DNA of 64,000 nt from Polyangiaceae bacterium (lineage in GTDB: Bacteria > Myxococcota_A > Polyangia > Polyangiales > Polyangiaceae), in NCBI GenBank assembly GCA_019637295.1, contig JAHBVX010000012.1, positions 1 to 64,000 on the forward strand, in the 5' to 3' direction. This document shows, in pieces, positions 2,492 through 41,080 of the stretch. The stretch's first letter is position 1; each line of letters opens with the position of its first letter. The position numbers and the translations under genes are program-made. The notes under the pieces were generated by a model that saw only the letters and a list, made by a program, of their open reading frames with translations, was not told the DNA's origin and searched no databases.

Positions 2492-3613
2492 TCATGAGGT
2501 GTCCGGGGGGAGCGGCGCGGTGGTGTCGGTGCCAAGGGGATGGCGGAGCATCACGCCGACTGCACAGCGGGGGCAGCGGCGAATGTCGACGCCGGTGAGC
2601 CTGAGGAGGAGTTCGCGGAAGTCTCGCGGGGGGCGCGTGAAGGTCTCGGTCGTCGGCATCGGCGAGGCCTCGAGCAGACGCTTGGCCAAGGCGAGCCGGG
2701 TCCGGACGCTGCCCGACGCCATGAGGCCGTGATAGCGGATCTTGACGAAGCCCTTGGGCAGCACGTGTTGGACGAAGCGCCTGAGGAAGTCCACGGGAGC
2801 GACGGTGACGGTCTGCGCTCCGCGAGTGCGGAAGGTGACGCCGCGCTCGTCGAGGGAGACGAGCCTCCGGTTGGAGAGGCCGACGCGGTGGGTGTAGCGC
2901 CCGAGGTAGCGGAAGACCTCCTCGGGTCCACCGAAGGGCGGCTTGGCGTAGACGACCCATCGTGCACGATAGAGCTTGTCTCGAATGCGTGCGAATCGCG
3001 CTGGGTCGGCGAGGGGCGCGGCGGGACCCGTGAGGCGGAGCTCGCCACGGTCGTGCAGATGGGCGAGCCCGGCGAGCAACTTGCCACGGAAAAGCTTGCC
3101 GAGGACACGGACGGGGAAGAGGAAGTCGGGGCGGGTGGCGATCCATCGCTTGCCGTCGAGCGACAGTCCCCCGCCGGTCACGATGCAGTGCACGTGCGGG
3201 TGGAAGAGCAACTCGCGGGTCCACGTATGGAGCACGCTGGTGATCCCGAGCTGGGCGCTGAGCCATCTCGGGTAGCGTCCGAGTTCGAGGAGCGTCTCGG
3301 CAGCTGAAGCGAAGAGCAGATCGAAGAGCTTCTCGCGCTTGGCCATCACGAGGTCACGGAGCTCGGAGGGCAGCGTGAAGACGACGTGGAACGCATGCGT
3401 GGGGAGCAGCCGCTCCATGCGCCCTTCGAGCCACCGCGCCTGCGCCAAGCCCTGGCACTTCGGGCAATGCCGGTTGCGGCATGAATTGTAGGCATGTCGC
3501 GCGGCATGCGTGGCCTGCGCGGTGAGCGCCGCGGCTGGGGGGCTGGCCCGGGTCGGGGCGCTCCCAACAACAGCTAGGGCTGGGCCCGCTCGGGCCGAAG
3601 CAGGCGCCGAGCG
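2492..3613 (-). mobile_element. IS91-family HUH (Y2) transposase, N-terminus degenerate
   Basis: This is a rolling-circle transposase of the Y2/IS91 type. The sequence shows the zinc-binding signature SCRNRHCPKCQ, the metal-binding HUH motif in LFHPHVHCIV, and the paired tyrosines of FRYLGRYTHRVG, four residues apart. A C-terminal CPRC pair follows. The frame is open from an in-frame stop at 3614-3616, but it has no convincing start: the residues before YNSCRNRHC do not look like the usual first Cys motif, and a better match seems to lie in another frame. An N-terminal frameshift or truncation is therefore likely, and the copy may be inactive. The first usable start inside the frame is TTG at 3448 (318 aa), which would lose the zinc finger. 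Confidence 0.85.
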
Positions 3614-4645: not shown

Positions 4646-6904
4646 CTAGGCGCCGAGCCCGCTCGGGCTGCTGCGCGCTGGCAGCTCCTGGCTGCCAACT
4701 CCGATGCCCAGCGTGCGCCGAAGCGTGGCGTAGCGGGTGGAGACCGAGAACGGGATGGCATCGCGAATGCGGTCTGCCGCGGACAGTCCTCCAACGACGC
4801 GCCCGTCCACGGCGAGCATGCGCGCCGCCGCGGTGACGTCCCCGGAGACCAGGAGCCCCGCGCGGCAGGCAGCGAGCTCGAGCGAACACAGCCAAGGCTT
4901 CAGCTCCAGGCGTCCGTCCCGGGCTTCGAGCTCGCGAACGGCTCCGGTCAGTTCGGCCCGTTGGGCGTCGCCGAGGCGCGCTGCCAGCGCTTCGCGCAGC
5001 GCCAGCGCGTCCGCCGGCAGGCTCGTGGGTACGACCGCACCGACCGCGGCCAGGAGCAGCGCGCGAAGCTCCGGCAAGGTGGGGTAGAAGGTCAGTACCC
5101 GGGACGCCAGGTGTTGGCAGCTCAGCTCCCGGCCGATGGCGAACACCAGCTCCGGGACGGAGCGACCGCTGAGCAGCGACTTTCCGAGCACCAACGTCGG
5201 CTCCGGCAGCGGCGCCGACACCACCCCGCCGGGCAAGTCGTCGCTGTGGGTGTAGATCGCCGGCACGGGCAGGCCGAGCACCTTGCAGGCCCAACCCACG
5301 GTGCGCACCGCGGTGATCGTCGACTTGTCGGGGTCTTGGCGATTCTTGGGCTCGAGCACCGGCAGCCGGCCCGCCTTGCGCAGCTGCGCGAGCTTCAGCT
5401 CGATGGCGGGAGGTCCAAGCGCGCGCACGATGCGCGAGATCACGAAGTCGTGCTCCGGGACGAACAGATCCGAGAAGCCTCGGTCGCCGAGCGCGCTGCT
5501 GGGCCGCACCGTGGTCTGGGGCGCGTACTGTCGGTACACGGCCTGCTCCGCGACGTCCGCCTCGCCCAGATGGACCAGCACTGCGCAGGCGCTGTAGGCG
5601 CGATCCGGGTCGCCTAGCATCGTGAGCAGGCGATTCAGCTCTCGGAACGTGGCCACGCGCGAGGGAGCCCACAGCGCTGCGCTTTCGAGCGCGAGCGCCG
5701 CGAGCTGCAGCTGACCGGTGCGTTCCAAGAGCTCCGCCAGCCGCGCGCGCACGTCCACGGCTTTGGGGTCCTGCTGCACCAGCTGATCGAGCGCCACGAT
5801 GGCGCCCTCGGTGTCCCCCATCCGCTCGTCCCGCAGCCGGGACAGCTTGTCGAGCAACGCCGCGCGGGCGCCCTGCTCGCCCCGCTCGGCCAAGCGCTCG
5901 AGCTGCCGACCGTAGGCGCTCTCCACCTCCCGCCAGCTCTCGCTGCGCACCAACACCGCCTCGATCGCGTCGAAGGCGCCCGGTGTGGTCGGATCGTCGG
6001 CGATCGCCGCCTCGTACAGGGCCACCGCGCGCGCGACGTGTCCGGTCCGGCGCGCGCACATGCCCGCCGCAGCGCTGAGGGACCGCGCGCGATCCCGCGG
6101 GTTGCCAATCGTCTCCGAGAGGGCAACCTTCGCGTCGACGGCCTCGCTCCAGCGACCCGCCGCCTCCAACGTGGACTGCAGTCGCTCGAGCAGCCTCGGA
6201 TCTCTGGGCCTCAGAGCGAGCGCCTGCTCGAGCGCCTCGATGGTCGCGTTCAAGCACTCGTCGGCGATGGACGAGAGCTGCTCCGCACGCTCTGGGTCCG
6301 TCGTGGCTTTGCGGAGGAGCCGGCGCCGCAGCGCCGCGGCAGTCGCGTTGTCCGCGCACTCCCGCGCGATGGCGATGCGCTCCTTCAGCGCGGCCTCGTG
6401 GTTCGGGAAGATGGCGAGCGCGCGGTCGAGCAACGCGACGGCTTGCTCGGTGGAGCCGGTGCGACGCTCGATGGACGCCAGGCACACCAGCACCTCCGCA
6501 TGGCGAGGCCCGGTGTCCGACGCCAGGAGCGACTCGGCGAACGCGTATGCCCGCTGTGCGCGATCGAGCTCGCCGGCGTCGAGTCGACGTGCGCCCTCGG
6601 CGATGGCCTCCTCGAGGGCGGGGTCCTCCACCGGCTCGAGCCGGCGACAGCTCGCGCTCGCTGCGAGCGCGGCGTAGTCGTCCTCGGTCGCGCGGCCCCC
6701 GCCGGCGCGCGCCAGTACGAACACGTCCCCGTCCCCGGGCGTGTGCTCGCCCAGGGCGTGAGCCAGAGCGCGCGCCAGAGGGTCGATGGACGGCAGGGTG
6801 ACCAGCACGGCCTTTCGCCCTTCGGCGTGGCTCTGCAGCCAGGTGATTGGGCTTGCGTCCAGAGCAGGCGGATCGAGAACGACGGCGATGCGCATGGTGT
6901 GCAT
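4646..6904 (-). CDS. TPR protein with the C-terminal domain shared with the 1775-aa neighbour
   Basis: A 752-aa protein. The first ~90 residues form an alpha/beta region (MRIAVVLDPPALDASPITW) not recognised as a family. Residues ~100-430 are helical TPR-type repeats (for example the ALLDRALAIFPNHEAAL and ALEQALALRPRDPRLLERL units). The last ~250 residues align by eye with the C-terminus of the giant protein at 8144-13471: LVLGKSLLSG, a LVFAIGRELSCQ block, a PELRALLLAAVGAVVP block, and LAACRAGLLVSGD. The order of these blocks recalls M48 metallopeptidases, but the HExxH is absent, so a dead peptidase-like fold is inferred. ATG at 6904 or 6895 is equally possible. Probably a cytoplasmic scaffold; its partner is unknown. 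Confidence 0.75.
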   Translation of the reverse strand: MHTMRIAVVLDPPALDASPITWLQSHAEGRKAVLVTLPSIDPLARALAHALGEHTPGDGDVFVLARAGGGRATEDDYAALAASASCRRLEPVEDPALEEAIAEGARRLDAGELDRAQRAYAFAESLLASDTGPRHAEVLVCLASIERRTGSTEQAVALLDRALAIFPNHEAALKERIAIARECADNATAAALRRRLLRKATTDPERAEQLSSIADECLNATIEALEQALALRPRDPRLLERLQSTLEAAGRWSEAVDAKVALSETIGNPRDRARSLSAAAGMCARRTGHVARAVALYEAAIADDPTTPGAFDAIEAVLVRSESWREVESAYGRQLERLAERGEQGARAALLDKLSRLRDERMGDTEGAIVALDQLVQQDPKAVDVRARLAELLERTGQLQLAALALESAALWAPSRVATFRELNRLLTMLGDPDRAYSACAVLVHLGEADVAEQAVYRQYAPQTTVRPSSALGDRGFSDLFVPEHDFVISRIVRALGPPAIELKLAQLRKAGRLPVLEPKNRQDPDKSTITAVRTVGWACKVLGLPVPAIYTHSDDLPGGVVSAPLPEPTLVLGKSLLSGRSVPELVFAIGRELSCQHLASRVLTFYPTLPELRALLLAAVGAVVPTSLPADALALREALAARLGDAQRAELTGAVRELEARDGRLELKPWLCSLELAACRAGLLVSGDVTAAARMLAVDGRVVGGLSAADRIRDAIPFSVSTRYATLRRTLGIGVGSQELPARSSPSGLGA

Positions 6905-6997
6905 CCTAAGTCATCGCTCGCGGTCTCGTGACTGCCACGAGCGGCCACCCTGTGTTTCGGTTGCTCGCGGCGCGGTCTGACCTATCCTGGCGGCGCC

Positions 6998-8140
6998 ATG
7001 ATCTCGCCCAGGCCCCGCGGAGCTCCACGACTGCAGCGGCTAGGCTCGCTGCTCCTCCTGGCCGCGAGCGCGGGGCTTGGCTGCGAGCGCAAGCCCGACG
7101 AACCGGTCGCTCCTCGCGCGGTGGACGAGCCTGCCAACCCGGCGCCCTCCGCCGACGGCGCGACCGGTGCTGCGCGAGTCATCGCCGACCTGCGCCGCGA
7201 GAGGCTCCCCTTGGTCCCACGCGCTCGCGCCGCTCAGCGCATCGTGCTGCAGCGCGGCAAGCTGGCTCATCTGACGCAGGATGCCTTGGTCATCCGCGAC
7301 GTGGTTGGCAGCAAGGAGCAGCTGCGGCTCCCGGTCTCGGGGCCCCGCCTGCTGACGGTGCTCCGAGATGGCAGCCTGCTCGCGCTGTTGGAACGCGAGT
7401 CCCTGCGCGTCGAGCCGCGCAAGTACGAGGTGACGCGCCTGTCACGCGTACCCTTGTTCCCGCAATCGCAGCTCGTGCCGGACCCGCTGCGGGAGCGGCG
7501 ATTCTACGTTGTACACGCCTTCGACCCCACGCTGTATGGCTACGAGATCAGCGACGATGGAAAGCTCACCACCCTCGACTTCGTCGAGCTCGACGGCTTC
7601 GACGGCCGCGCGTTCGTGATGCTCAAGGACGGCTCGTTCCTGCACACCACGAAGCAGGGGCTGCGGCGCTTCTTCCTCGGTGGCAAGGCGCAGACCTTCG
7701 CGCTCGAAGGCGAGGCCGACGTGTGGCGCATCATGACGGCCAAGCGCCTCTCTCGCTTGTGGCTCGCGCGCAGCTCCGGACACTTCGAGCTGTGCGAAAT
7801 CGTCGGCTCCGCGCTGCGTGTCGTGGCGCGATTGCCGGCGACGGAGCCGGTCGACTCGGTCAGCTCCGACGCCGGGCTCGCCTGGCTCGGCGTGCAGTCC
7901 GCGGGGGCCGGTCGCCACTTCTCCCTCGAGCTGCTCGACGAAGCCGGCGCGAGCCGCGCGCTCGGCACCTATCCGCTGGCGGAGGCCTCCGGAAGCGGGG
8001 AGAGCTGGGTCTCGGAGGTGCTGGAGGACCGGGGGATCGCAGCCAGCGACGACGGCGCGCTCATAGCGGTCGGCGGGCCGAGCCTGCTCGAGGTGTGGAA
8101 CGCCAAGACCGGCGAGCGGCTGCTGCGCACTCCGCCCTGA
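6998..8140 (+). CDS. Lipoprotein with a probable beta-propeller fold
   Basis: A 380-aa exported protein. The N-terminus is a basic region, a hydrophobic stretch and a lipobox (LLLLAASAGLGC), so the mature protein should be lipid-anchored at Cys. A Pro/Ala-rich linker follows. The rest is a run of beta-rich segments with recurring patterns such as DGSLLALLER, DGSFLHTTKQ and DGALIAVGGPSLLEVWNAKTG, the last like a WD/PQQ blade. No catalytic motif was seen. It sits between two leftward TPR genes, is divergent from 4646-6904 (start-to-start 93 bp) and convergent with 8144-13471 (stops four bases apart). A shared divergent promoter region with the TPR gene is possible. Confidence 0.7.
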   Translation: MISPRPRGAPRLQRLGSLLLLAASAGLGCERKPDEPVAPRAVDEPANPAPSADGATGAARVIADLRRERLPLVPRARAAQRIVLQRGKLAHLTQDALVIRDVVGSKEQLRLPVSGPRLLTVLRDGSLLALLERESLRVEPRKYEVTRLSRVPLFPQSQLVPDPLRERRFYVVHAFDPTLYGYEISDDGKLTTLDFVELDGFDGRAFVMLKDGSFLHTTKQGLRRFFLGGKAQTFALEGEADVWRIMTAKRLSRLWLARSSGHFELCEIVGSALRVVARLPATEPVDSVSSDAGLAWLGVQSAGAGRHFSLELLDEAGASRALGTYPLAEASGSGESWVSEVLEDRGIAASDDGALIAVGGPSLLEVWNAKTGERLLRTPP

Positions 8141-8162
8141 GCCCTAGGCTCGAGCAGGGCTC
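8139..8162. terminator. Short hairpin between convergent stop codons
   Basis: GAGCCCT at 8139-8145 and AGGGCTC at 8156-8162 form a 7-bp stem with a 10-base loop. The stem includes the stop region of the plus-strand lipoprotein and the stop codon of the minus-strand pseudokinase gene. There is no T-run, so it is only a possible bidirectional terminator. Confidence 0.35.
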
Positions 8163-11100
8163 GCGATGTCGTCCTCGCTCAGTTCCTCGACGGTCAGGTC
8201 GGTGCTGAGCAAGAGCCGATGCCGCAGGCGCAGGTACTCGCTGCTGACGGCGTAGGTGAGCAGCGCGCGCTCTCGTTCCTCCGCGCTCGTCGCTCCGGGG
8301 GTCTGGGCGGCGCGGCGTACGGCAGTCGAGCAGGTCGCCAGGTCGCCGCAGAACACGAGGCCGACGCGATCGCAGCTCAGATCCACTCCCGCGATCCAAC
8401 GCGTCAGGTCCGCCTGGCCCCCCGCCGCGAGCAGCGCCTCGACCAGGCGCCGAACGCGCTCTTCGAGCCGGTCGTCGAGGTGTCGCGCGAGCGAACGTCC
8501 CGCGGACTCCACCGACTCGGCGATCTCCGCGGGGACGGGCAGATTGGGGGTGACCAGACGAATGGCCGCGAGCACCCAGGCCTTCAGCTCTGCAGGAGGC
8601 AGCAGCGTGCGCAGGTAGTAGCCCGGCCGAAGCAAGGACAAGCAGGACGCCGCCATGTAGCCTGCGGGCGCTCGCGGGAGCTCGCTCTGAGCGGCGCTGC
8701 GCGAGAGCAGCACCAGCGGCCGAGCGCTCCGGCGCAGCGTCATGGGCGCCATCGAGTCGGCCTCGAAGAACAGCGGTAGCGGGATCCGGAGGGCGTCCGA
8801 CACCCGCTGAAACGCCCGCACCAGCGTGCCTTGGCAGTTCTCGGGAGTGAGCGCGTCCTCTTCCCGGAGCCCCAGCGCCGAGAGCGAGTAGCGCTGCATG
8901 CTGTCCGCGACGACGGGCTGGATCTGGCTCAGCAGACTGGTCAGCGTCGGGTTGACGAACGGATGTGCGATGAGCGACCTGTACTCCTCGTCGCTGATCC
9001 GCAGCTCGAGCTCCAGAGGTCCGGCGCGACGCTGCTCTCGGAAGTACTCGTCTTCGGCTGGCGTCGCCGCGCCGAGGACGACCAAGACCTGCGCCGCGCA
9101 CCAGGCAGCGTCGCGCCGCTCGGCACCGAGGGACAAGTCGAACAGTCGACGATACCCGTCCGGGGCACGCGGATCCCGCGCCAGCACTCGGCGCGCCAGG
9201 GCAGCGGCACGATCGAGGTACTGCTTCGCGTCCGTGAGGTACAGCTCTGCGAGTACGTTCTCCCTCGCCGGATCCGAGGGAACCAGTCGCAGCGCGCTCT
9301 CGTTGATCGCGATCGCGTCGGCTACGTCGAGCTCCCCGAGATGCACGTCTGCCAGCCTCGTGGCCCACAGGTACGCGCGCTCCTTGTCCTGGCGCGCGGA
9401 GGCCCGCGCGATCTGTGCCTCCAGGATGCGGCGAACCCCCGCCACGTCGCCCACCTTGCTGCGCAGCGCCAGCGTCTCGGTCACGATGCTCTCCGAGTTG
9501 GGGTCGGCCTCGAGCGCGCGGTCGTACAGCACCAGCGCTTCCGCCGGATCGTCCAGCTCCTCGACCGTGATGCGGGCCGCCGTCTGCAGGTAGCGCGCGC
9601 GATCCCGTCTCCCGCTCGCGAGCTTGGCCAGCCGCAGCACGACCACCACCACCCGCTGAAAGTCCTGCGCATCGCTGTGGATGCGCAGCATGCGCAGCAG
9701 GATCTTGCGGTCGGACTCGCTGTCCGTGAGCGCCTCCACGTACACCTGGGTCGCCGCGTCCAGGTCCGACAGCCGCTCTGCGTAGGCGTCTCCCACCTCG
9801 AGCAGCAGCTCCTGGTCCTCGTCGAGCAGCGCGAGTTCGTGCAAGCGCTCGAGGGTGGCGCGGAGCTCGTCCCGCTGACCGAGGGTCTGGTGAGCCACGA
9901 CCAGCTCGCGCAACGCGTCGACCGAGCGACGATTCGCCACGAGCGCGTGCTCGAACGCGCTCACCGCGGCCTCGGGCTGCGCGAGCTGCTGGAGCAAGCG
10001 ACCCCGCCGCAGGTGCGCCTGGCACACCTCGTCCAAGGTCAGCGACTTCTCGTGGTGGTCGAGCAGTCGGTCCGTCAGCTCCAGCGCGAGCTGTGGCGTC
10101 TCGAGATCGACGCTCAGGCGCGACGCGAACGCGGCAGCGACTAGGCTCTCTTCGCTGCGCTCGACCAGGGAAGCCAGCCGGCCTCGCGCCATGGCGGCGT
10201 CGCCCGAGCGCTGTAGTGCTTCGGCCGAGTGAGCCAGGAGCCGCACGGCGCTGTCCGCGTCGAGCCGCGAAACGCCAGCCAGCGCCTGCTCGTAGTGCTC
10301 GCAGGCTGCCGCCCAGGCCTGCGCGTGCCGCTCGATGTCGCCGCAGAGCAGGCGAACGTCCGGGTTGCTCGGGTCGCGCTCGAGCGCGAGGTTGGCCGCG
10401 ACTGCCGCGCGGGCCGGGTCGCGCGCCTCGTCGAGCCAGAGCCGGCCCAGGGCCGCGCCAAGCTGGGCTGCGGCGCCGCTGGACGCAGCGTGCGACAACG
10501 AGCGCTCGAGCAGCGTGGTGGCCGCGCCCAGCTGCCCGCGGTTCGCCAGCAGTCGGGCGAGCTTGCGTGCCGCGAGGGGGTGACCCGGGAGCTCGTCGAG
10601 GAGACTTCGGTAGCGTTGCTCGGCGCCGCTGTCGTCGCCGAGTTGCTGCAGCATGTTCCCTGCCTTGAGCCAGGCTTCGGCGCGCTGCTCGGGCGACGTA
10701 GCCTGTCTGGCCAGGTTGTCGAGCGCGAGCGCAGCGCTCTCGGCGTCGCCCCGGGAGGCGCGCAGGGTGGCGGCCTTGTCGAGCGCGGTTCGGTCGTCCG
10801 GGCACAGCCGCAGGGCGGAATCGTAAGCAAAGAGCGCGCGGACTTCGTCGCCCAGCTCCGCCTCGGCCAGCTCCCCAGCCTGCACCCAGAGCTCGGCGCC
10901 GCGCGCTGCGCTGGGGGCGTGCTCGGCGTGACGCTCCAGGGTGCGCGCGAGGGGATCCCACAGGCGTTGCCTCCGGTAGGCGTGCGCCAGGGCCTCGAGC
11001 GCCGGCTCGGAGCTCGGATCGATGTCCAGCAGGCGCTCGAGGGCGTCGCTGGCGGCGCGGTCGTCCAAGAGCTCGGTCCGCGACAGCGTCGCGATGCGCC

Positions 11101-13471
11101 CGAGCAAGCTGACGCGCTGCGCGGGAGTGAGCGCGATCTGCAGTCGTCGCTCGAGGGTCGCGCGTGCCTTCTCCGGCAGCCCGGCGCGAAGGTAGCCCCT
11201 CTCGAGCGCGTCGAGCGCCGCCACGTGAGACGGATCGTCGGCGACCACCTGCTCCCAGACCAGCAGCGCCCGGTCCGGATCGTCGAGTCGCGTCTCCAGA
11301 CCGCGGGCGAGCTCGAGCAGCAGCCGCGTACGCTCACCGCCTTCCGCCGCATCGGCGCGGCGCTCCATCAGCTCGACCCAGTCGCGGTGACTCCCGGTCC
11401 GCAGGTACAGCGCGCTCAGCGCCTCGGCAGCTCGCCGGTGCCCGGGATCTTCCGAGAGCACCTGCTCGAGCAGCTGGCGGGCGTGATTCTCGGGTCCGCC
11501 GTGCTCCATGAACACCGCCGCGGCTTCGACCCGCAGGTCCCGCGCCCGTGGCGGAGCCGCCGCCGTCGCCGCGCGGGCCAGCAGCGCGTGGCCGAGCTCG
11601 CCGTACAGCTGCCCTCTCCGATAGATTTCCTCGATGCGGTCGAGGGCGACGTCGTGCAACGGATCCAGCGCGACCACGGCGCGATGGCACTCGAGGGCGA
11701 GGTCGGGGCGGCCGAGGCGGGCGTCGTACCAGTGGCCCATCCGCTCCAACAGCGCGACCCGACGCTCCGGATTGATGGTGTCGGCTGACTCGGCCAGGGT
11801 CGCGAGCGCCGTCGCCCAGCTCGCCGGATCGCTGCCCACCGCGCGCTCGAGGGCCAGTGCGTGCCCGTCATTCGTAGGGTCCTCCGCGGCGGCCGCCGTG
11901 AGGGCCACCAGCGCTTGCTCGCGATTGTCGAGCTCGGTCGACAGCAAGTGACCGAGCTTGCCCAAGACTCGCGCGCGGTCCACGGGATCATCCAGCGCGT
12001 CGCGTTGGTCCAGCAGCAGCTCGACCACCTGAGCGAACTCCCCGCGCCGGCGCAAGACTCGCTCTAGCGCCGTGCGCGCGCCGTCATCCGCGCGGTTCGC
12101 GTCGAGCACCTGCCGGTACACGCGGGCCGCCGTGGCCGTGTCTCCCATCAGGTTCTCGAAGATCGCGCCCGCTCGCACCAGTAGTCCGCGCCTGGCCGCG
12201 CGCGCCGCGCCCTCGTCATCGAGTTGATCCGCTGCGAGCAGCAGCGCTTCGGCGACCCGGCGAGGCTCCGCGCCCTGATCGATCGCCGACTCGAGCACGC
12301 CCCGCGCTTCCTCGCTCGCTGGTTCGGCGAGCAGCCGAGCGATCTGCGTGTCGAGCGCCTCCTCCGGCACCAGTCCGCCCGAGGGCGAGCGCGCAGCGGC
12401 GAAGGGGACCAGGAGCTCCAGCACCGCCGACGCGTGCGGTGGCCGAACCCCCGGCGCCGGGTCGATCAACTCGAGCACCAACTCGTCCAGCCCTGGGGCC
12501 AGTCGTCCGGATGGGACCAGAAACCCCAGCGGCTCGGGCTCGGCGGCGAAGCGCCGCCTCGCGAGCTCGGGGTCCGTCGGCGCCCAGGGCAGGCGCCCGG
12601 CGAGCAGCGCGTAGAGCCACAAGCCGATGGAGAACACGTCACTGCGCGGCGTGGGAAGCTCGCCGCGGAGCTGCTCGGGGGCCGCCCACGCCGCGACCAG
12701 CGGGCGCACCTGGCCGGTGGCCAGGCCGCCGACGAGCGTCTGGCCGCGCAGGTAGTGGGCCCCCGCGTCCAGCAGCACCGGCGCGGGCCCGTCCTCGCGC
12801 GCGGCGACGAGCAGGTTGTTCGCGTGTAGAGCGCCGTGCGCCAGCTGTGCCCCGTGTAGGGCCGCGAGCCCGGTCAGCACGCGGCGCACCAGCGGCCAGG
12901 CGTCCGCGAAGGACATCGGCCCCGCCGCGCCGAGCACGAACGGCTCCCCCTCGGCCGCCTGGTGGACGACCACGTGACGATCGTCGATCGGGCCGGCGAA
13001 GGCGAGCTGCGGCAGCCAGCGCTCGCCGGCGCTGCCTGCGGCTCGGGTGGCCGTCAGGAATCGCTGGGCCGCCGCAGCCGCGACGCTGCGTCGCAGCAGC
13101 TTGAGCCGCACGGCTCGACTCCCAGCGCGCGCGCGATAGACCACCGCGGCGGGTCCGCTGCCGAGCTCGGCCTCCAGTCGGTACTCGCCCAGTCGGTCTC
13201 CAGGCCCCAAGCCCTCTTCCACGCGACTGCCCGCGTGGCGCAGGGTCAGCAGCTGCGCCGCGAGCTGGGGGCGTCGCAGCACCATGGCGTCCGCGAGCGC
13301 CTCGAGCGCCTCGTGCTTCTCGCAGTGGTCGACGAGCTGCGCCGCCAGCTCCGCTCGCGTGCGACCCGAGAGTACCCCGGCATCCACGCCCAAGAGCTCG
13401 ACGCCCAAGGCGGCGATCTCTTGCGCTTCGAAGTCGCGCTCCAGCTCCGCCAACACGAGGGTGTTCCCCAC
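8144..13471 (-). CDS. Giant pseudokinase-TPR protein (1775 aa)
   Basis: A three-part protein. Residues ~90-360 have a Hanks-kinase layout: GDRLGEYRLEAELGSG (glycine loop), VRLK (Lys124), then HGALHANN at 212-219 where an active kinase has HRDLKxxN, LLDAG at the DFG position, and AAPEQLRGELPTPRSDVFSIG in the activation region. The catalytic Asp is missing, so it should be a pseudokinase. Residues ~390-1450 are dozens of TPR-like helical units (e.g. ARVYRQVLDANRADDGA, ALLVWEQVVADDPSHVAAL). The last ~330 residues match the C-terminus of the 752-aa protein at 4646-6904, ending with WIAGVDLSCDRVGLVFCGD. Start ATG at 13471 gives a natural N-terminus. It is divergent from tetR. It probably acts as a large cytoplasmic scaffold. 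Confidence 0.85.
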   Translation of the reverse strand: MGNTLVLAELERDFEAQEIAALGVELLGVDAGVLSGRTRAELAAQLVDHCEKHEALEALADAMVLRRPQLAAQLLTLRHAGSRVEEGLGPGDRLGEYRLEAELGSGPAAVVYRARAGSRAVRLKLLRRSVAAAAAQRFLTATRAAGSAGERWLPQLAFAGPIDDRHVVVHQAAEGEPFVLGAAGPMSFADAWPLVRRVLTGLAALHGAQLAHGALHANNLLVAAREDGPAPVLLDAGAHYLRGQTLVGGLATGQVRPLVAAWAAPEQLRGELPTPRSDVFSIGLWLYALLAGRLPWAPTDPELARRRFAAEPEPLGFLVPSGRLAPGLDELVLELIDPAPGVRPPHASAVLELLVPFAAARSPSGGLVPEEALDTQIARLLAEPASEEARGVLESAIDQGAEPRRVAEALLLAADQLDDEGAARAARRGLLVRAGAIFENLMGDTATAARVYRQVLDANRADDGARTALERVLRRRGEFAQVVELLLDQRDALDDPVDRARVLGKLGHLLSTELDNREQALVALTAAAAEDPTNDGHALALERAVGSDPASWATALATLAESADTINPERRVALLERMGHWYDARLGRPDLALECHRAVVALDPLHDVALDRIEEIYRRGQLYGELGHALLARAATAAAPPRARDLRVEAAAVFMEHGGPENHARQLLEQVLSEDPGHRRAAEALSALYLRTGSHRDWVELMERRADAAEGGERTRLLLELARGLETRLDDPDRALLVWEQVVADDPSHVAALDALERGYLRAGLPEKARATLERRLQIALTPAQRVSLLGRIATLSRTELLDDRAASDALERLLDIDPSSEPALEALAHAYRRQRLWDPLARTLERHAEHAPSAARGAELWVQAGELAEAELGDEVRALFAYDSALRLCPDDRTALDKAATLRASRGDAESAALALDNLARQATSPEQRAEAWLKAGNMLQQLGDDSGAEQRYRSLLDELPGHPLAARKLARLLANRGQLGAATTLLERSLSHAASSGAAAQLGAALGRLWLDEARDPARAAVAANLALERDPSNPDVRLLCGDIERHAQAWAAACEHYEQALAGVSRLDADSAVRLLAHSAEALQRSGDAAMARGRLASLVERSEESLVAAAFASRLSVDLETPQLALELTDRLLDHHEKSLTLDEVCQAHLRRGRLLQQLAQPEAAVSAFEHALVANRRSVDALRELVVAHQTLGQRDELRATLERLHELALLDEDQELLLEVGDAYAERLSDLDAATQVYVEALTDSESDRKILLRMLRIHSDAQDFQRVVVVVLRLAKLASGRRDRARYLQTAARITVEELDDPAEALVLYDRALEADPNSESIVTETLALRSKVGDVAGVRRILEAQIARASARQDKERAYLWATRLADVHLGELDVADAIAINESALRLVPSDPARENVLAELYLTDAKQYLDRAAALARRVLARDPRAPDGYRRLFDLSLGAERRDAAWCAAQVLVVLGAATPAEDEYFREQRRAGPLELELRISDEEYRSLIAHPFVNPTLTSLLSQIQPVVADSMQRYSLSALGLREEDALTPENCQGTLVRAFQRVSDALRIPLPLFFEADSMAPMTLRRSARPLVLLSRSAAQSELPRAPAGYMAASCLSLLRPGYYLRTLLPPAELKAWVLAAIRLVTPNLPVPAEIAESVESAGRSLARHLDDRLEERVRRLVEALLAAGGQADLTRWIAGVDLSCDRVGLVFCGDLATCSTAVRRAAQTPGATSAEERERALLTYAVSSEYLRLRHRLLLSTDLTVEELSEDDIASPARA

Positions 13472-28436: not shown

Positions 28437-31154
28437 CTAGCGCCGTGGAAGTCGCTTCACGACGCGGAACGACGTCCCCGTTCCCCGAGTGAACGCGTGC
28501 AGGCCGCCGCGGGAGGCGGCACGGACCCAGCTCTGATCCGTGTTCCAGGAGCCCGCTCGCACCATGCGCCAGCCGGATTGGTCTCGGCCTGTCTCTGGGT
28601 CCGGCTCCGGCTCGGCGTCGAGCTCCTCCGCCGTCCGCTCGCCGTGGATGTCACCCACCCACTCGCGCATGCCGCCGACCATGTCGCGAACGCCGTACGG
28701 GGAAACGTCCGTGGGGAAGGTCCCGATCGGCTCGGGCTGCTGGATGAAGGGTCGCGAGTCACGCATCAGGCAGAACACGGGATCGAACTCGTCACCCCAC
28801 GGGAAGTAGCGACCGTCGGTCCCACGCGCCGCCTTCTCCCACTCGGCCTCGGTGGGCAGGCAGATTGTTGCGCCGAGCTTGCCGGACAGCCAGCGGCAGT
28901 ACGCCCGGGCATCGAACCAGTCCACTAGCCACACCGGAACCCGCCAGGCGTGACCCTCCTCGAGTGGGAACTGCTTGCGGGCGTCCCCCTCGATGATGGT
29001 GTCGCTGACGTGCCACTCACCCGAGGCGTCCCGCCACAGCGACGCCGCGTCCATGCCCGAGTGTCCGATGCCGCGGATGTCGTGGGGTACACGCTTGACG
29101 GCCTCCAGCGGGGACCTTGCGCTCAGCTCCGCGATGAACTCGCAGTACTCGCGGAAGGTCACGGGAAACTCGGCGATGGCGAAGTCACCGACTTCCACGG
29201 CCTGACGGCGGATGGGATCGATGGCCTGCGAATCGCCGCCCAAGATCACCGCTCCCGCGGGTACGTGGATGAAGCCCGCTCCGATCTCCGCGTCCGTGTA
29301 GAGCGTCACCGAGGCCACATGATGGCCACCACGCGCGAGCAGCACCGGGTAGCGGGTGTCGCGGAACCCCGGAGCGCGAAGCGTGAGCAGGTAGCTGCCG
29401 GGCTCGAGGTGCACGTCCTCGAGTGGCGCTGCGCCGAGGGGGCGCTCGTCGCCGGCGACGAGCACTCGATCTTGCGCGACGTAGCGCTGCGCCACCACCT
29501 GCGCCCCGGGCGGATTGGAGCGGAGCGACAGCCGCGCGTCTGCGCGCAGCTGAGCCGCGTAGGTTCCGTCCACGTCGTGCTCGAGCACCAGCGCTTCGTA
29601 GTAGATCCGTGACGCGACTCGCCGCTGGCGCTCGGCTTCCCGGGCGCGCGACCAGTACAGCTCGCCGAGTCCCCGATGGGCCTCCACGCTCTCGGCGTCG
29701 TAGCCCAGGGCCTTGGTGTAAAGCTCGATCGCTTGCGCCAAGGCCAAGGCAGCCTCGCGCTCGGCCTCGGCCATGCGGTCCGTGAGGCGCCAGACGCCGC
29801 GCTTGCGCTCGACCGACTCCCAGCTCTCGATCTCCCGCTCGGCTTGGCGAGCCACGGTGGCTAGGTGCTGCTGCTCGCTCTCCAGCTCGTGGTATCTGCG
29901 TACGGGCTCGGTGGCCTGCTCGCACAATCGGCGGGCTTCGATGCGGCGCCGCTCTCGCTCCTGTGCGCCATCGAGGAACTCCTCGATCTGTCGCGCGACG
30001 TCGCTCGCCGATTGGACGCGCTGGGCCGGGTCCTTGACCAGCAGAGCCAGGCACAGATCCTCCAGCAACAGTGGGCAGCCCGGCACCAGCTGCCGCGGCG
30101 GCACGGGCTCCTGCTCGTACGCCGCGAGCAACGTCGCGTAATCGGTCGCGCAGCCGAACGGATGCTGGCCCGTGAGGATCTCGTACAGCATCACGCCCAG
30201 GGCAAACACGTCGCTGCGCTCGTCGACCTCGGCCCAGTTGCCGATCGCGACCTCCGGCGCCAGGTAGCCCGGCGTGCCGCCGATGGGCGAGGTGAACTCG
30301 GGGGGCGGTGACGAGTCGCTCATCGCCGCGCGCACCTCGCTGGTACGATCCACCCGCGCGAGGCCCCAGTCCGCCAGGTACACCTCGCCGAAGTCACCGA
30401 GCAGGATGTTGTCGGGCTTGATGTCTCCGTGCAGCACCCCGCGCGAGTGGGCGTAGTCGAGCGCACGACAGACCTGCACGAATGCGCCGAGCAAGCGCAC
30501 CAGCGGCCACTTCTCGCGAGGAAGTGGCAGATCGAGCACGTCCCCGAGGGACTGCTTCTTGACGACCCGCATCGTGTAGTACGGCTCGCCCGAGGGCAGC
30601 GCTCCCAGGTCGTAGACCGGGACCACGTTCGGGTGCTCGAGCTGAGCGGTGATGCGTGCCTCGTGGACGAAGCGACGCACGACGTGGGGCTCTGCGTGGA
30701 CGCCTTCGCGCAGGGTCTTGAGCGCCACGACGCGGCCGATCTCCCGATCCTGGCTGGCGACGACCTTGCCGACGCCGCCGCGTCCGAGCGGCTCGATGAT
30801 GCCGTAGCGCGGGCCAGCCAGGTGGCCCGGCAGCGCACCCATCGAGACCGGCGGCTCATCCGGATCGAGCGGTACGCTCGAGATTGGCGAGCGCTTGCCC
30901 CCGATGGCGGCGCCGGGCCCTAGCTCGATCACGCCGTTCCCGCTCGGGCTCGGGTACGAGGGCTGCGTCTCCGCGCTGCGGTCCGCCGCCTGCGGTGACG
31001 GCTGCGTTGCCGCAGGCGAAGGCCTCTTTCCAACTGGGAGACCATCGACGCGAACCGACGCCACCTTGGACGCCGCCTCCCACAGCTGCTCCGGTGTGAT
31101 CAGCCCGCGGGCGAGAGCATCGAGCGCCAGCGCGCGGGGATCCGGGAACTTCAT
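28437..31154 (-). CDS. Ser/Thr protein kinase fused to a formylglycine-enzyme-type domain
   Basis: A 905-aa protein. Residues ~1-110 form a Pro/Ser-rich leader. The Hanks kinase spans ~117-390: [16 protein letters not shown] (Lys146), HGDIKPDN with catalytic Asp244 (HRD is HGD) and ADWG in place of DFG. A helical, coiled-coil-like linker follows (~390-520, with [12 protein letters not shown]), then a PEGA-like strand segment ([15 protein letters not shown]). The C-terminus from ~640 is an FGE/SUMF1-type domain ([51 protein letters not shown]). Such kinase-FGE fusions occur in myxobacteria and Planctomycetes; the FGE part is often a binding module rather than an oxidase. The catalytic cysteines of true FGE were not seen. 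Confidence 0.85.
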
Positions 31155-32727: not shown

Positions 32728-34044
32728 TCAACGCAGCCGATGGCGCTTCATCAACTCCATGAGGTAGGAGCGATCCATGCGCGCGTCACGCGCGGCTTGC
32801 CGCGCGTTGCCGCCGCTCTTCTGCAGCAAGCGCTCGACGTAACGTCGCTCGAAGTCATCCATGACCACCCGCTTCGCCTCCCGGTACGGCAGCTCGAAGG
32901 CAGAGGCGCTCTCGAGCGAGTTGCCCTCGTCGCCGCCGGCCGGGACCGAGTCGAGACGCGCGGGCTCTCCGAGCGCCAGCGTGCCGAGCACGAAGTTTCG
33001 CAGCTCTCGCACGTTGCCGGGCCAGGGGTGGGACAGGAGCTGCTTCACGGCGTCCGGGGGGAAGACGTCCCCCAGGCGCCCGGAGTACCCGGCGTCGGCC
33101 AGGAAGTGCTCGATCAGCCCCGGGATGTCCTCGCGTCGCTCCCGCAGCGGCGGCACCGCGAGCGTCACGACCGCGATGCGATAGAAGAGATCCAGGCGAA
33201 ACGCGCCGCTGTTGACGTGGCTGCGCAGGTCGCGGTGGGTCGCCGACACGAGGCGTACGTCGATCTCGATGTCGTCGCGGCCGCCGACGCGACGCACACG
33301 CCGGCGCTCGAGGGCGCCGAGCAGCGCCGACTGCAGCTCTGCGGGGAGCTCACCGATCTCGTCCAGGAACACGGTGCCGCCGTGGGCTCGCTCGAAGGCT
33401 CCGATGTGCTGGCGCTCCGCGCCAGTGAACGCACCGCGCTCGTGACCGAACAGCTCACTGGAGAAGAGCGTGGGGGTGATCGCGCCGCAGTCGACCGTGA
33501 CGAAGGGCTCGGCCGCGCGCGAGCTCGCGTCGTGCAGCGCGCGGGCGATCAGCTCCTTGCCCGTGCCTGACTCGCCGAGCACCAGCACCGACACGTCGCT
33601 GGCCGCGACGCGGGTCGCTTGCGCCATCAGGCGGCGGACCGGCTCGCCCTGGCCGAAGAAGTCGCCGAGTCGCGCGGGAGCGTCCCCGACCGCGACGATG
33701 TCGCCGTCGTCCACGCGTAGCGTGGTGGCGCCGACCGACAGCGAGGTCTTCGGGTCCACCGTGGCGCTGCTCGACTGGAGCACGGCGCTGCCGATGCGCG
33801 TCCCGTTCGTCGAGCCGAGGTCGACCGCGAGGATGCGACCGGCCTGGCGGCGCACTTCGAGGTGAAAGCGGCTGACCGTGTTGTCCGTCAGGACCAGGTC
33901 GTTGCCATCCGCGGTGCCCACGCTGATCGCGCCAGTGTCCGACGCGATCGTCCGGCCGGTGTCGGGCCCCGAGCAGACCTCCACGCGCAGGGTCCGGACG
34001 AGCCGTCCGCTCCGCTCGAGGGGAACCGTGCGATCCGAGGGCAT
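32728..34044 (-). CDS. FHA-domain sigma-54-dependent transcription activator
   Basis: A 438-aa enhancer-binding protein. The FHA domain at ~20-110 shows [24 protein letters not shown] and [12 protein letters not shown], the phosphothreonine-binding pattern. The AAA+ domain at ~125-365 has Walker A GESGTGKE (157-164), the sigma-54-contact loop GAFTGA (204-209), and [13 protein letters not shown] as Walker B. A Fis-type helix-turn-helix ends the protein ([20 protein letters not shown]). In place of a receiver it reads phosphothreonine through FHA, so kinases of the same operon are its likely input. It is the last gene of a leftward six-gene set, 38 bases after the kinase ahead of it. Confidence 0.92.
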
Positions 34045-34082: not shown

Positions 34083-36044
34083 TCAGGCGCCGCTCGCCCG
34101 TCCCTCGAGCACGCCCCCGTCCGCGGTGACCAGGATCACGCGGTCGGTCTCGGCGTGGACGCTCACGAAGGGCGCGGTCCAGCGGCTGTCGCGCCAGCAC
34201 TCGGACCAAGCGGCGCCCTCGGCTGGGGCGTACCAGACGACGCCGGCGCCGGCGAGCCACGCTCCGCCGTCCAGATCGAGCCCACAGGCTGACCAGGACG
34301 TGCCGCCGCCGAGGGCGAGCGGGTGCCCACCCCGTGGCCCCACTCGCAGCACATGAGCGCCGCCCGTCGCGATGGCCACGCCGCGCTCGGGTAGCCCGGC
34401 AGCCGAGACCCACGCGGCCGCCGCGCCGCTGTCGAGCTCCTCGAGCCGCCCCTCGACAGGCCGGAAGAGCGCCGCATAGCCACCGCCGGCGTCGCGGCGT
34501 CCAGTGACCAGCCAGCGCTCGCGCTCGAGCTGAGCGAGACCCGAGATCGTCGTGACCGCCGGCAGCGCGAGCGGCTCGCGCCACCGGCCGCCGCGAAGCG
34601 CAGCCAGCAGCGGCGGGGCGCCGCCCCGGCTGATGACCAGCACGCACAGCTCCGTCAGGTTTCCCGAGAACGCCGTGATGTTGCCGCCCAGCTCCGGGCA
34701 AGACAGCAGCTCATCCATCTTCCCGGCGCCGAGGGCTTGCAGCCGGCACCCATCCAGGGACAACAGCCAGCGCCCGGCGCCGAGTCGCCTCACCATGTGG
34801 ACGGGCGAACCCAGAGGTCGAGCCAGGTCCGACCAGCCGACCCCATCCCAGAAGCTCAGCCCGTCGAGGGTGGCGGCGAGGCAGTGTCCGTCACTCTCCC
34901 ACGCGACGTCGACCATCACCCGAGCGCCGCCGGGATGTCGCGGCATCCAGCGCCAGCGCGCGGGATCGCGCCCCGTGATGCGCTCGGTGCGAACCGAGAG
35001 CACGCTCGCGGTGAGGCGCTCGCTCGGCTGCCCGCTCGGTGGGAACTCGTCGAGCGCCGCGGCGAGCGCTGCCCCGAAGTCAGCGGCCGACTGGGGGCGG
35101 TGCCGAGGATCGGCGGCCGTCGCGCGCGCCAAGACGTCGTCGACGGCGCGACAGGTGCCCGGCCGGGCCGCGAGCTCGGGGGACACGGTCGCGCACTCTG
35201 CGAGCCGACGACGGCCGGGCTGAGTTGTGGCCAGCACGCCGTCGATCGCGGACTTCACGTCGAAGTAGCGCTGCCCCGTCAACATGAAGAACACGATCGC
35301 GGCCAGACTGAACACGTCCGTCGTGGGTCCGATCTCGTCGCGCAGATGGATTTGCTCCGGCGCGACGTAGCCGGGTGAGCCCAGCGCGATGTCCCCGAAG
35401 GTGGAGAGTACTCCGCTCGGGCGGGCGATCCCGAAGTCCGAGACCTTGACGACCTCGGACGCGCCGAACCCGCAGCACAGCACGTTGCCCGGCTTCAGAT
35501 CCCGGTGAGTGATGCGAGCGGCGTGGATCTCGGTGAGCGCCGCGACGAGCTGCTCGAGCAGCGCGGCGACGCGCGGCGGATCGAAGGCGTACCCCGTCTT
35601 GGCGACGGCGTAGCGGACGCGCTTGGAGAGGGTCTCGCCCTCGATCCCGCCCGGAACGTACTCCACGGCGAGCCACGGCAGCCCGACGCTCCTGCCCTCG
35701 TGCTGGACGTGCGTGGAGCCCGTGTCCAGCAGCCGGACCACGAAGGGAGTGGGAGGCACCCGCTCGTTCAGGCGTCCGAGCGCGACTACCTCCTTCTTGA
35801 ACAAGCGAGTCACGATGTCCCCGCTCTCGAACACCACCTCGGGTCGCATGACCTTGAGCACGACCGGGAAGCTCCCCTCCGGGGCGTGGCGCTGAGCCAG
35901 CACTGCATGCGCGAACCCGCCGCGCCCGATCGCTCGCTCCAGCGTGTAGCTGACCTCCGGGCGGTACTCGGAGCGGAAGCTGGCCGCCGCTAGTCCCGCG
36001 GGGAGCGCGTCACGCCCCGACGCGCTGTCGGAGGCACTACTCAC
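34083..36044 (-). CDS. Ser/Thr kinase with a C-terminal propeller-like region
   Basis: A 653-aa protein with no membrane segment. Its kinase domain (~30-340) has IGRGGFAHAVLA, VVLK, HRDLKPGN near residue 180, SDFGIARPSG and GSPGYVAPEQ, so it should be active. Residues ~390-653 are repeated beta segments (CLAATLDGLSFWDGVGWSDL, TEDGG-like turns, VILVTADGGVLEG) that resemble a seven-bladed propeller and could bind a ligand or partner. It lies 16 bases after the preceding kinase gene and 38 before the FHA activator. It is a good candidate for the kinase that acts directly on that activator. Confidence 0.88.
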   Translation of the reverse strand: MSSASDSASGRDALPAGLAAASFRSEYRPEVSYTLERAIGRGGFAHAVLAQRHAPEGSFPVVLKVMRPEVVFESGDIVTRLFKKEVVALGRLNERVPPTPFVVRLLDTGSTHVQHEGRSVGLPWLAVEYVPGGIEGETLSKRVRYAVAKTGYAFDPPRVAALLEQLVAALTEIHAARITHRDLKPGNVLCCGFGASEVVKVSDFGIARPSGVLSTFGDIALGSPGYVAPEQIHLRDEIGPTTDVFSLAAIVFFMLTGQRYFDVKSAIDGVLATTQPGRRRLAECATVSPELAARPGTCRAVDDVLARATAADPRHRPQSAADFGAALAAALDEFPPSGQPSERLTASVLSVRTERITGRDPARWRWMPRHPGGARVMVDVAWESDGHCLAATLDGLSFWDGVGWSDLARPLGSPVHMVRRLGAGRWLLSLDGCRLQALGAGKMDELLSCPELGGNITAFSGNLTELCVLVISRGGAPPLLAALRGGRWREPLALPAVTTISGLAQLERERWLVTGRRDAGGGYAALFRPVEGRLEELDSGAAAAWVSAAGLPERGVAIATGGAHVLRVGPRGGHPLALGGGTSWSACGLDLDGGAWLAGAGVVWYAPAEGAAWSECWRDSRWTAPFVSVHAETDRVILVTADGGVLEGRASGA

Positions 36045-36060: not shown

Positions 36061-37479
<1,419 letters not shown>

Positions 37480-40085: not shown

Positions 40086-41080
40086 CAGAACGCCCCGCGC
40101 AGCGTCGCGGAGGCTGGCCCCACCGCCAGCGCGACGCCGCGCTCTTTGGGAGCGGTGAGCCACAGCGCCGCCGCGGTACCCAGCCCCACCACGCCCACGA
40201 CGTAGCCCACCGTCGAGACAGTGCGCAGCGTGCGGAACGCATCGACGTCGTCTTGCCCTGCGCTGCCCGGCGCGCAGCGCAGGTTGGGGCAGGCCGCGGT
40301 CGCGTCCGAGTGCCGACCCGTCGCCAGCACGCCGCCGACGATGCCCACCCCCAGCCCCGCCACCCCCACGCCGCCCGCGATCCACACCAGCGCGGGCTTC
40401 GAGGGGGCGACCGCGGGCTTCGACCCGGACGCGTCGGAGGGCTGCTCCCTGGCGGTGACGGCGCCGCCGCTCGCGACCTCGAGCGTCAGGGTGCGGGCCT
40501 GCCCTTCGGTCAGGTCGACGCTGCGGCGCAGCTCCTTGCCGTCCGCGCCGCGCACCACGATCTCGTGTTTGCCCGGATCGATGGGGGCGGGGACTCCAAT
40601 CAGCGCAGCCGGCAGCGGCTTGCCGTTCAGCAGCACGACGAGGTCCGGCGACTTGGCCCCGGGGCCGCCGAGCGCGAGGGTGAGCTTGGGGATGCGGGGC
40701 CTGAGCGCGCTGAGCGCGGAGTTGGCTTCCTGCACGGCCTCCTGAAACGCGCGTGGTGAGTCGTCCGTGAGGCGGAATCGGGTAGTGCGCACGTACGCCT
40801 CGCTGGCCTCCACCAGGCGCCCGAGCTGCTCGAGCGCGCGGCCCTCGCGCACGGACAGCGAAGGCGCACCCACCAACGCGTGGGCGCGACGATAGAGATC
40901 GGCGGCGACGGCGAACTCCTTGCGCTGAAACGCCTCCCCGGCTTGCGCGGCGAGCTCTCTGGCCGCGTTGCGGGTCGCGTCGTCGGGCTGCGCGAGGCCT
41001 CGGCCCGCGCTCAACGTGAGCGCGGCCGCCGTGAGCCAACTTGCGGCGGCACGCGCGCTAGAAACCGAGATCCTCGGCAT
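40085..41080 (-). CDS. Exported TPR/PEGA protein with C-terminal membrane helices
   Basis: A 331-aa protein with a signal peptide (AASWLTAAALTLSAGRGLAQ). Residues ~40-110 form TPR-like helices (AGEAFQRKEFAVAADLYRRA). A PEGA-like beta segment follows (DLVVLLNGKPLPAAL, IDPGKHEIVVRGADGKELRR). Two hydrophobic helices close the protein (LVWIAGGVGVAGLGVGIVGG and VGYVVGVVGLGTAAALWL). This architecture recurs beside myxobacterial Ser/Thr kinases. It starts 23 bases inside the upstream kinase gene and ends on the start of the lipoprotein gene, so translation of the three is coupled. It probably links envelope and kinase. Confidence 0.8.
   Translation of the reverse strand: MPRISVSSARAAASWLTAAALTLSAGRGLAQPDDATRNAARELAAQAGEAFQRKEFAVAADLYRRAHALVGAPSLSVREGRALEQLGRLVEASEAYVRTTRFRLTDDSPRAFQEAVQEANSALSALRPRIPKLTLALGGPGAKSPDLVVLLNGKPLPAALIGVPAPIDPGKHEIVVRGADGKELRRSVDLTEGQARTLTLEVASGGAVTAREQPSDASGSKPAVAPSKPALVWIAGGVGVAGLGVGIVGGVLATGRHSDATAACPNLRCAPGSAGQDDVDAFRTLRTVSTVGYVVGVVGLGTAAALWLTAPKERGVALAVGPASATLRGAF

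What the first reader, a model, noticed from the sequence alone, without database searches (positions are those of the whole stretch)
4646..13471. Pseudokinase-TPR giant and its TPR paralogue with a possible dead M48-like C-terminal domain
The 1775-aa protein keeps the kinase layout but has HGALHANN for HRDLKxxN and LLDAG for DFG. It shares its last ~250-330 residues with the 752-aa neighbour. In both, the blocks are ordered like an M48 peptidase, yet the HExxH is gone (AGYMAASCL and AIGRELSCQ). Two dead enzyme folds joined by more than 25 TPR units suggest a scaffold or sequestration system. I know of no described system with this composition.
Basis: partly seen in the sequence, partly recalled or inferred. 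Interest (0 to 1): 0.72.

Follow-up and report, generated by a model that had tools for sequence, protein, structure and literature searches.

The report
Dead kinase joined to dead protease
This bacterial gene encodes a very large protein built from two enzyme-like parts that look burnt out, a kinase and a metalloprotease, joined by a long chain of binding repeats; it belongs to a protein family, apparently undescribed, that is common in one group of soil bacteria and probably works as a scaffold rather than an enzyme.

Summary
Largely confirmed, with corrections. P1 (1775 aa) has a kinase fold (Foldseek E 2e-13 to PknA) lacking HRD Asp, HRD Arg and αC Glu, but it keeps β3 Lys, catalytic-loop Asn and the DFG Asp. 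The C-terminal domain (CTD) shared with P2 (752 aa) is most likely a degenerate M48 peptidase: a profile match to HExxH-bearing M48s of the same genome (Prob 90.6; 12 controls ≤0.9), and structural neighbours that are all metallopeptidases at Z≥4 (17 entries, middling Z). HExxH is absent from P1, P2 and all 122 CTD segments examined. P1 is one member of a family: 70 of 80 named Myxococcota loci show the EAD7-like/kinase block and CTD in one protein of about 1780 aa, the other ten being cut by contig ends. αC Glu and HRD Arg are missing in 85 of 85 proteins, HRD Asp in 47. The CTD occurs in 60 of 60 same-family genomes and 97 of 187 of the phylum, also on very long ORFs and on proteins with a caspase-like N-terminus. 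P1–P2 adjacency is not conserved, so a P1–P2 system is not supported. Best reading: conserved non-catalytic scaffolds; function is inferred only.

The parts
8144..13471 (-). P1, 1775 aa: EAD7-like domain + pseudokinase + TPR solenoid + M48-like CTD without HExxH
13268..13447 (-). EAD7-like N-terminal domain (aa 9-68)
   Evidence: Pfam PF19960: 25.6 bits in full length, 29.1 in aa 1-430, 32.9 in the genome search; cut-off 32
12407..13198 (-). protein-kinase fold (about aa 92-355)
   Evidence: Pfam Pkinase 37 bits over cut-off 31.7; model pLDDT 89.4, Foldseek PknA 2.1e-13
13043..13063 (-). αC segment RFLTATR (aa 137-143): Ala141 where canonical kinases have Glu
12815..12838 (-). HGALHANN (aa 212-219): HRD Asp and Arg lost, Asn kept
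12761..12769 (-). DAG (aa 235-237) in place of DFG; Asp kept
9017..12184 (-). TPR solenoid (about aa 430-1485)
   Evidence: several Pfam TPR families; length count
8207..9016 (-). M48-like C-terminal domain (about aa 1486-1755)
   Evidence: model of aa 1440-1775 pLDDT 91.9; VIA-align; hhalign
8633..8647 (-). SCLSL (aa 1609-1613) at the place of HExxH
8360..8386 (-). VDLSCDRVG (aa 1696-1704), counterpart of the third-ligand region of own-genome M48s (AEITCDRAG, AELTADRVG); Glu replaced by Asp
4646..6904 (-). P2, 752 aa: short N-terminal region + TPR + M48-like CTD
6620..6904 (-). P2 N-terminus (aa 1-95), weakly similar to the start of the caspase-like region of D-type relatives
   Evidence: hhalign Prob 56 against alignment A9, 5 shuffled controls at or below 0.3
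4700..5527 (-). M48-like C-terminal domain of P2
5117..5131 (-). RELSC (aa 592-596) in P2 at the place of HExxH

Best explanation
P1 is a non-catalytic scaffold/adaptor. It belongs to a family that, in Polyangia and related Myxococcota, joins an EAD7-like adaptor domain, a kinase-fold domain that has lost part of its catalytic machinery, a TPR superhelix of about 30 unit lengths and a degenerate M48 domain. Shown here: the architecture, its narrow length range (1754-1838 aa from the conserved start in 85 proteins) and wide distribution; loss of αC Glu and HRD Arg in all 85 members examined and of the catalytic Asp in 47, including all four of the P1 clade; absence of HExxH in every CTD segment examined; strong conservation of other residues at that place. 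Inferred: the EAD7-like domain self-associates or pairs P1 with its paralogue A; the kinase fold, which in P1 keeps K, N and the DFG Asp, binds nucleotide or a partner as a switch; the TPRs collect partners; the M48-like cleft, whose HExxH helix has become (R/Q)HLxYYRPG-like in most members, binds a peptide or protein without cutting it. P1 is a second, diverged paralogue of protein A and may regulate or replace it under some conditions.
For: In 80 named loci, 70 proteins have both the N-terminal block and the CTD and the other 10 are cut by contig ends. In 85 distinct proteins (110 less 25 duplicates): αC Glu 0, HRD Arg 0, HRD Asp 38, β3 Lys 64, Asn 78, DFG Asp 82, while HRD His, subdomain IX Asp and subdomain XI Arg are 85 of 85 and APE Glu 83 of 85; no Glu within two residues of the αC place. 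P1 clade (P1, L046, L047, L056; support 1.0) all HGA, with β3 Lys changed to R, R and Q in the other three. Kinase fold. M48 fold; profile. No HExxH in 122 CTD segments. Conserved residues beside the lost motif. CTD in 60 of 60 same-family genomes and 97 of 187 of the phylum.
Against: No functional data. 27 of 85 members keep K, D, N and D, and 14 of these keep DFG too, so some may be active or altered kinases; own paralogue A keeps K, D, N, D. For M48: Foldseek alone gave no match at E≤0.001; VIA Z is 4-6, below the level the tool calls safe; Pfam gave no M48 hit in 38 CTDs; hhalign against HtpX alone found nothing; with the 63-row alignment headed by P1 the Prob falls to 61.4; a CTD HMM scores L087 and L088 at only 21.0 and 18.2 bits, chiefly over the third-ligand region, and L086 and L090 at about zero. 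EAD7 scores straddle the cut-off and only 16 of 62 relatives reach E≤0.01.
Confidence: 0.6

Rival explanations
1. The kinase fold is not dead but repurposed: like SelO or SidJ it uses the retained Lys, Asn and DFG Asp with bound ATP for another transfer reaction.
For: P1 keeps K124, N219 and D235; 64, 78 and 82 of 85 relatives keep them. A table in PMC12599244 lists SelO with Hgvmntdn and DYG, the same HG start.
Against: αC Glu absent in 85 of 85; within the P1 clade β3 Lys has become R, R and Q, and L056 has also lost the DFG Asp, which looks like drift rather than a kept active site.
Confidence: 0.15
2. P1 is an effector or decoy of an EAD-type biological conflict system (MoxR-vWA/VMAP, STAND), in which inactive kinases and peptidases are typical cargo.
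For: EAD7-like N-terminus; Kaur et al. 2020 describe inactive kinases and peptidases as effectors in EAD-linked systems (PMC7159879, passages), and a 2021 paper places EAD7 on STAND proteins (PMC8195603, passages); some CTD relatives carry a caspase-like N-terminus.
Against: In the own genome P1 is the only EAD7 hit at E≤0.01, and in 26 genomes 9 of 12 hits lie in this family's own long ORFs. No MoxR, vWA or STAND protein among 23 window genes scanned around P1. Wide presence in one bacterial family and narrow length range do not look like sporadic conflict genes.
Confidence: 0.15
3. Long-type members are housekeeping partners of the type II secretion machinery, as the pseudokinase EssB is for type VII secretion; P1 is a divergent copy.
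For: Gsp genes (GspK-, GspL- or GspM-like, each named from one representative) lie convergent to the long-type gene in 18 of 80 named loci.
Against: The gsp genes are on the opposite strand, so not one operon; not found beside most members (of 73 named loci with a called gene, 55 had 4.5 kb of 3' flank), nor beside P1. May be inherited gene order only.
Confidence: 0.07

Closest known systems
Bacterial Hanks-type Ser/Thr kinases (PknA/PknB/StkP)
   Same: fold and most structural motifs
   Different: αC Glu and HRD Arg lost in 85 of 85 relatives, HRD Asp in 47; TPR giant, no PASTA domain in P1
Described bacterial pseudokinase families (ActPs1-3, GLW, CP1, DYD, DLHK; PMC12599244)
   Same: kinase fold with lost catalytic residues; DYD also lacks αC Glu (sections 12, 13 and part 1 of 2 of section 4 read)
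   Different: no hit for myxo, Sorangium, TPR or tetratricopeptide in that review's main text; the sections on ActPs1-3, GLW and CP1 were not read, so no residue-by-residue comparison with them
M48 peptidases (BepA, ZMPSTE24, 3c37) and the BlaR1 protease domain
   Same: nearest structural neighbours of the CTD; third-ligand region alike in own-genome M48s
   Different: no HExxH in 122 CTD segments
EAD-containing conflict systems (Kaur et al. 2020, PMC7159879; passages seen)
   Same: EAD7-like adaptor and inactive kinase/peptidase modules
   Different: no ternary-system genes among the window genes scanned; present across one bacterial family rather than patchy
EssB/YukC pseudokinase of type VII secretion (PMC12599244 section 4)
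   Same: kinase fold with a non-catalytic, scaffolding role
   Different: described there as a transmembrane protein; TPR giant and M48-like domain are not mentioned for it

Membership tests
Active Hanks-type protein kinase | bilobal kinase fold | tested here: met
Active Hanks-type protein kinase | αC Glu and HRD Asp/Arg | tested here: not met
   P1: A141, G213, A214
Active Hanks-type protein kinase | β3 Lys, catalytic-loop Asn, DFG Asp | tested here: met
   P1 K124, N219, D235
Pseudokinase | kinase fold without at least one canonical catalytic residue, shared by relatives | tested here: met
Pseudokinase | no phosphotransfer activity | not testable with these tools
   needs biochemistry
Peptidase M48 | HExxH zinc motif | tested here: not met
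   SCLSL in P1, RELSC in P2; 0 of 122 segments
Peptidase M48 | common descent/fold | tested here: met
   hhalign Prob 90.6 (three own-genome M48s) and 81.5 (two), 12 controls at or below 0.9; 17 of 17 VIA entries with Z≥4 are metallopeptidases (the class of some entries is recalled). Against: no Pfam hit, none to HtpX alone, no significant Foldseek hit, Prob 61.4 with the P1-headed alignment
EAD7 (PF19960) | score over Pfam's cut-off of 32 bits | tested here: inconclusive
   25.6, 29.1 and 32.9 bits by context; 16 of 62 relatives at E≤0.01; P1 is the only one over the cut-off in 26 genomes
MoxR-vWA/VMAP ternary conflict system | MoxR and vWA genes adjacent | tested here: not met
   none among 23 window genes scanned; the window's left end is a contig end and not every ORF was scanned
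Caspase-like (PF00656) N-terminus of some CTD relatives | Pfam match over cut-off | tested here: inconclusive
   one of nine (L215, 22.9 against 21.4 bits; seven other D-type/L220 N-termini and L004 gave none); segments where His and Cys would lie are not kept

The most novel reading that the evidence does not exclude
A phylum-wide toolkit of dead enzymes in Myxococcota: a degenerate M48 domain is the shared C-terminal 'socket' of TPR scaffolds that carry interchangeable dead heads (EAD7-pseudokinase, caspase-like, or none as in the 3789-aa giant). These proteins assemble with each other through the CTD and EAD7 and act as a central, non-catalytic signalling or cell-death platform.
Probability: 0.25. 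Interest if true: 0.85.

Novelty: new variant of a known kind. Interest (0 to 1): 0.58.

Why it matters
No Pfam family matched more than 2 of 38 CTDs, and none better than E 0.024, yet this domain ends a 3789-aa TPR giant here and ORFs of about 3,300-4,700 aa in many Myxococcota genomes. A conserved protein of about 1780 aa built from two apparently lost enzymes means that some genes of Sorangium, Polyangium and relatives that score as Ser/Thr kinases are probably not ordinary kinases. It also gives a clean test case for what pseudoenzymes do in multicellular bacteria.

Tried and rejected
Rejected: (1) P1 as a freak degenerate gene: it has relatives at 46% and 38% identity over its length in G055 and G017 and the architecture is general. 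(2) P1 and P2 as an operon or conserved pair: a gene on the other strand lies between; in G055 the P1-like gene (C3) and the P2-like gene (C1) lie on different contigs. (3) Anti-phage families: PADLOC hits of P1 lie over the kinase region; P2 has none. (4) 'DFG lost': the Asp is there. (5) A caspase label for the own genome's 877-aa protein: no Pfam C14 hit in it and none in the whole genome, so that label rests on relatives only.

Led nowhere: the CTD profile against PDB sequences (one hit, E 0.16, unrelated); Foldseek of the CTD without VIA (no E≤0.001); the 380-aa gene between P1 and P2 has no Pfam, NCBIfam or PADLOC hit. Paper searches: 'pseudokinase'+'TPR'+'Sorangium', 'pseudopeptidase'+'M48'+'bacteria', 'Myxococcota'+'tetratricopeptide'+'giant protein' and 'inactive'+'M48'+'metallopeptidase'+'tetratricopeptide'+'Myxococc' returned nothing; 'pseudokinase'+'myxobacteria' listed 6 papers, among them EcpK, a tyrosine pseudokinase of Myxococcus xanthus (listing only); 'pseudokinase'+'Sorangium' found 2, one listed; 'Sorangium cellulosum'+'kinome' listed 10, none opened. 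Only open-licence papers are held, so 'undescribed' means not found by these searches.

Full report
THE OBSERVATION. Both ORFs are as described. P1 (1775 aa, GTG start) carries Pfam Pkinase at aa 97-297 (37.0 bits, cut-off 31.7), TPR families through its middle and no Pfam hit in its last 300 residues. P1 and P2 match over 542 aa at 25% (E 3e-11), TPRs included. 'DFG gone' overstates: in DAG the Asp stays. P1 also keeps the β3 Lys (K124) and the catalytic-loop Asn (N219), and lacks the HRD Asp and Arg and the αC Glu.

A FAMILY, NOT A ONE-OFF. The own genome (7.65 Mb) holds a full-length paralogue A at 33% identity, a 3789-aa TPR protein, a 495-aa and an 877-aa protein, all ending in the same domain. 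The P1 CTD found a relative at E≤1e-5 in 60 of 60 genomes of the family. By my reading of that table some 45-50 of the 60 have a hit that fits the long type; I checked the kinase end in 41 loci (the own paralogue and 40 fetched) and found it in 39, the other two being cut by contig ends. A scan of named genomes gave 92 relatives, of which the best 80 loci were kept; by record title all are Myxococcota or 'Deltaproteobacteria', including Sorangium, Polyangium and Minicystis. 70 of the 80 have the kinase block and the CTD in one ORF; the other ten are cut by contig ends. The TPR middle was checked with Pfam only in P1; in the relatives it follows from full-length alignment and length. In the phylum 97 of 187 genomes carry the CTD at E≤1e-6, often at the end of ORFs of about 3,300-4,700 aa; of these only the own genome's was shown to be TPR.

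THE KINASE IS DEGENERATE THROUGHOUT. Among 85 distinct proteins (110 pooled from the anonymised and named sets, 25 with an identical C-terminal 1600 aa dropped) αC Glu is found in 0, HRD Arg in 0 (G in 84, A in 1), HRD Asp in 38 (A 27, N 19, T 1), β3 Lys in 64, Asn in 78, DFG Asp in 82, DFG Phe in 21. HRD His, subdomain IX Asp and subdomain XI Arg are in 85, APE Glu in 83. So structural residues stay while catalytic ones drift. 27 of 85 keep K, D, N and D, among them own paralogue A, and 14 keep DFG as well; these could be active in some form. A tree of the 85 (midpoint-rooted) puts P1 with L046, L047 and L056 in one clade (support 1.0), all with HGA. The model of aa 1-430 has pLDDT 89.4 and matches PknA at 2.1e-13.

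THE C-TERMINAL DOMAIN IS MOST LIKELY A LOST M48 PEPTIDASE. The P1 CTD model has pLDDT 91.9. Foldseek alone gave nothing significant. VIA-align of the top 1000 chains gave Z 4.0-6.1 for 17 entries, all metallopeptidases (class of some recalled), headed by BlaR1, ZMPSTE24, 3c37 and BepA; these Z values are middling. Independently, a 38-sequence CTD profile matched an alignment of three own-genome M48s at Prob 90.6 and one of two at 81.5, in the right order, while one reversed and 11 shuffled controls stayed at or below 0.9. With the 63-row alignment headed by P1 the Prob was 61.4. A CTD HMM gave L087 21.0 and L088 18.2 bits, chiefly over the third-ligand region, and nothing for L086 and L090. 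HtpX alone did not match, nor did any CTD match Pfam's M48. In the alignment HExxH falls on R(H/Q)LxY in most members, RHLSH in the own giant, SCLSL in P1, RELSC in P2; none of 122 segments (domain score ≥40 bits and at least 250 aa; some are pieces of one gene) has HExxH. The third-ligand region is close to that of the HExxH-bearing M48s L087 and L088, with Asp for Glu in most members.

THE N-TERMINUS. Pfam EAD7 covers aa 9-68: 25.6, 29.1 or 32.9 bits by context against a cut-off of 32. 16 of 62 relatives reach E≤0.01. In 26 genomes 12 EAD7 hits were found (in 11 genomes), 9 of them in long ORFs of this family; P1 is the only one in its genome and the only one over the cut-off. Kaur et al. 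2020 (PMC7159879, passages) describe EADs as homotypic recruiters and inactive kinases and peptidases as frequent cargo.

OTHER HEADS ON THE SAME TAIL. Eight relatives of about 880-1,100 aa (D type) begin with a homologous region of about 230 aa (19-55% identity to the first). One of the eight matches Pfam caspase over its cut-off (L215, 22.9 against 21.4 bits); the other seven and the 1503-aa L220 do not. In L215 the segments where the catalytic His and Cys would lie read YLSAFSH and LDLVYAG (the caspase motif itself is recalled). P2's first 90 residues resemble the start of that region (Prob 56, five controls at or below 0.3). P2 relatives in three genomes are 63-64% identical to P2.

NEIGHBOURS. 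P1 lies between a TetR gene (13606, +) and a 380-aa gene (6998-8140, +) with no Pfam hit. In 18 of 80 named loci at least one GspK-, GspL- or GspM-like gene lies convergent to the long-type gene, and in 15 all three do, with a 347-aa gene; P1 has none beside it. No MoxR or vWA protein was seen among 23 window genes scanned.

JUDGEMENT. A widespread family of probably non-catalytic modular scaffolds that my searches did not find described; P1 is a diverged second copy. O'Boyle et al. 2025 (PMC12599244: outline and abstract, sections 12 and 13, and part 1 of 2 of section 4 read) list bacterial pseudokinase families, and a term search of its text found no myxobacterial or TPR mention. Function is inference throughout.

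Noticed in passing
G000 C12:867093-878459 (L002:2594-13960, +): 3789-aa TPR giant ending in the same M48-like domain; CTD-bearing ORFs of similar size occur in many Myxococcota genomes. It keeps RHLSH and the Glu of the third-ligand motif, so it may be nearest to the ancestral peptidase.
   Followed up: partly
L215, L217, L216, L214, L205, L207, L004, L223 (N-terminal about 230 aa): Homologous caspase-like regions, apparently without catalytic His and Cys, on TPR + M48-like proteins.
   Followed up: partly
L051:1003-8089 and the like: Type II secretion genes (GspK-, GspL-, GspM-like, a pseudopilin) convergent with the long-type gene in 18 of 80 named loci; an MshEN protein (21 loci), a DivIC protein (19) and a methylmalonyl-CoA mutase (24) also recur nearby.
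   Followed up: partly
window 28440-31154, 34086-36044, 36064-37479, 41061-42584 (-): Cluster of Ser/Thr kinase genes, one fused to an FGE-sulfatase domain, with a sigma-54 activator carrying an FHA domain at 32731-34044.
   Followed up: no
window 2495-3448 (-), 60477-61346 (-), 62115-62858 (+): Y2 transposase, IstB of IS21 type and an AbiEii-like gene near the window's ends; the window begins at a contig end.
   Followed up: no
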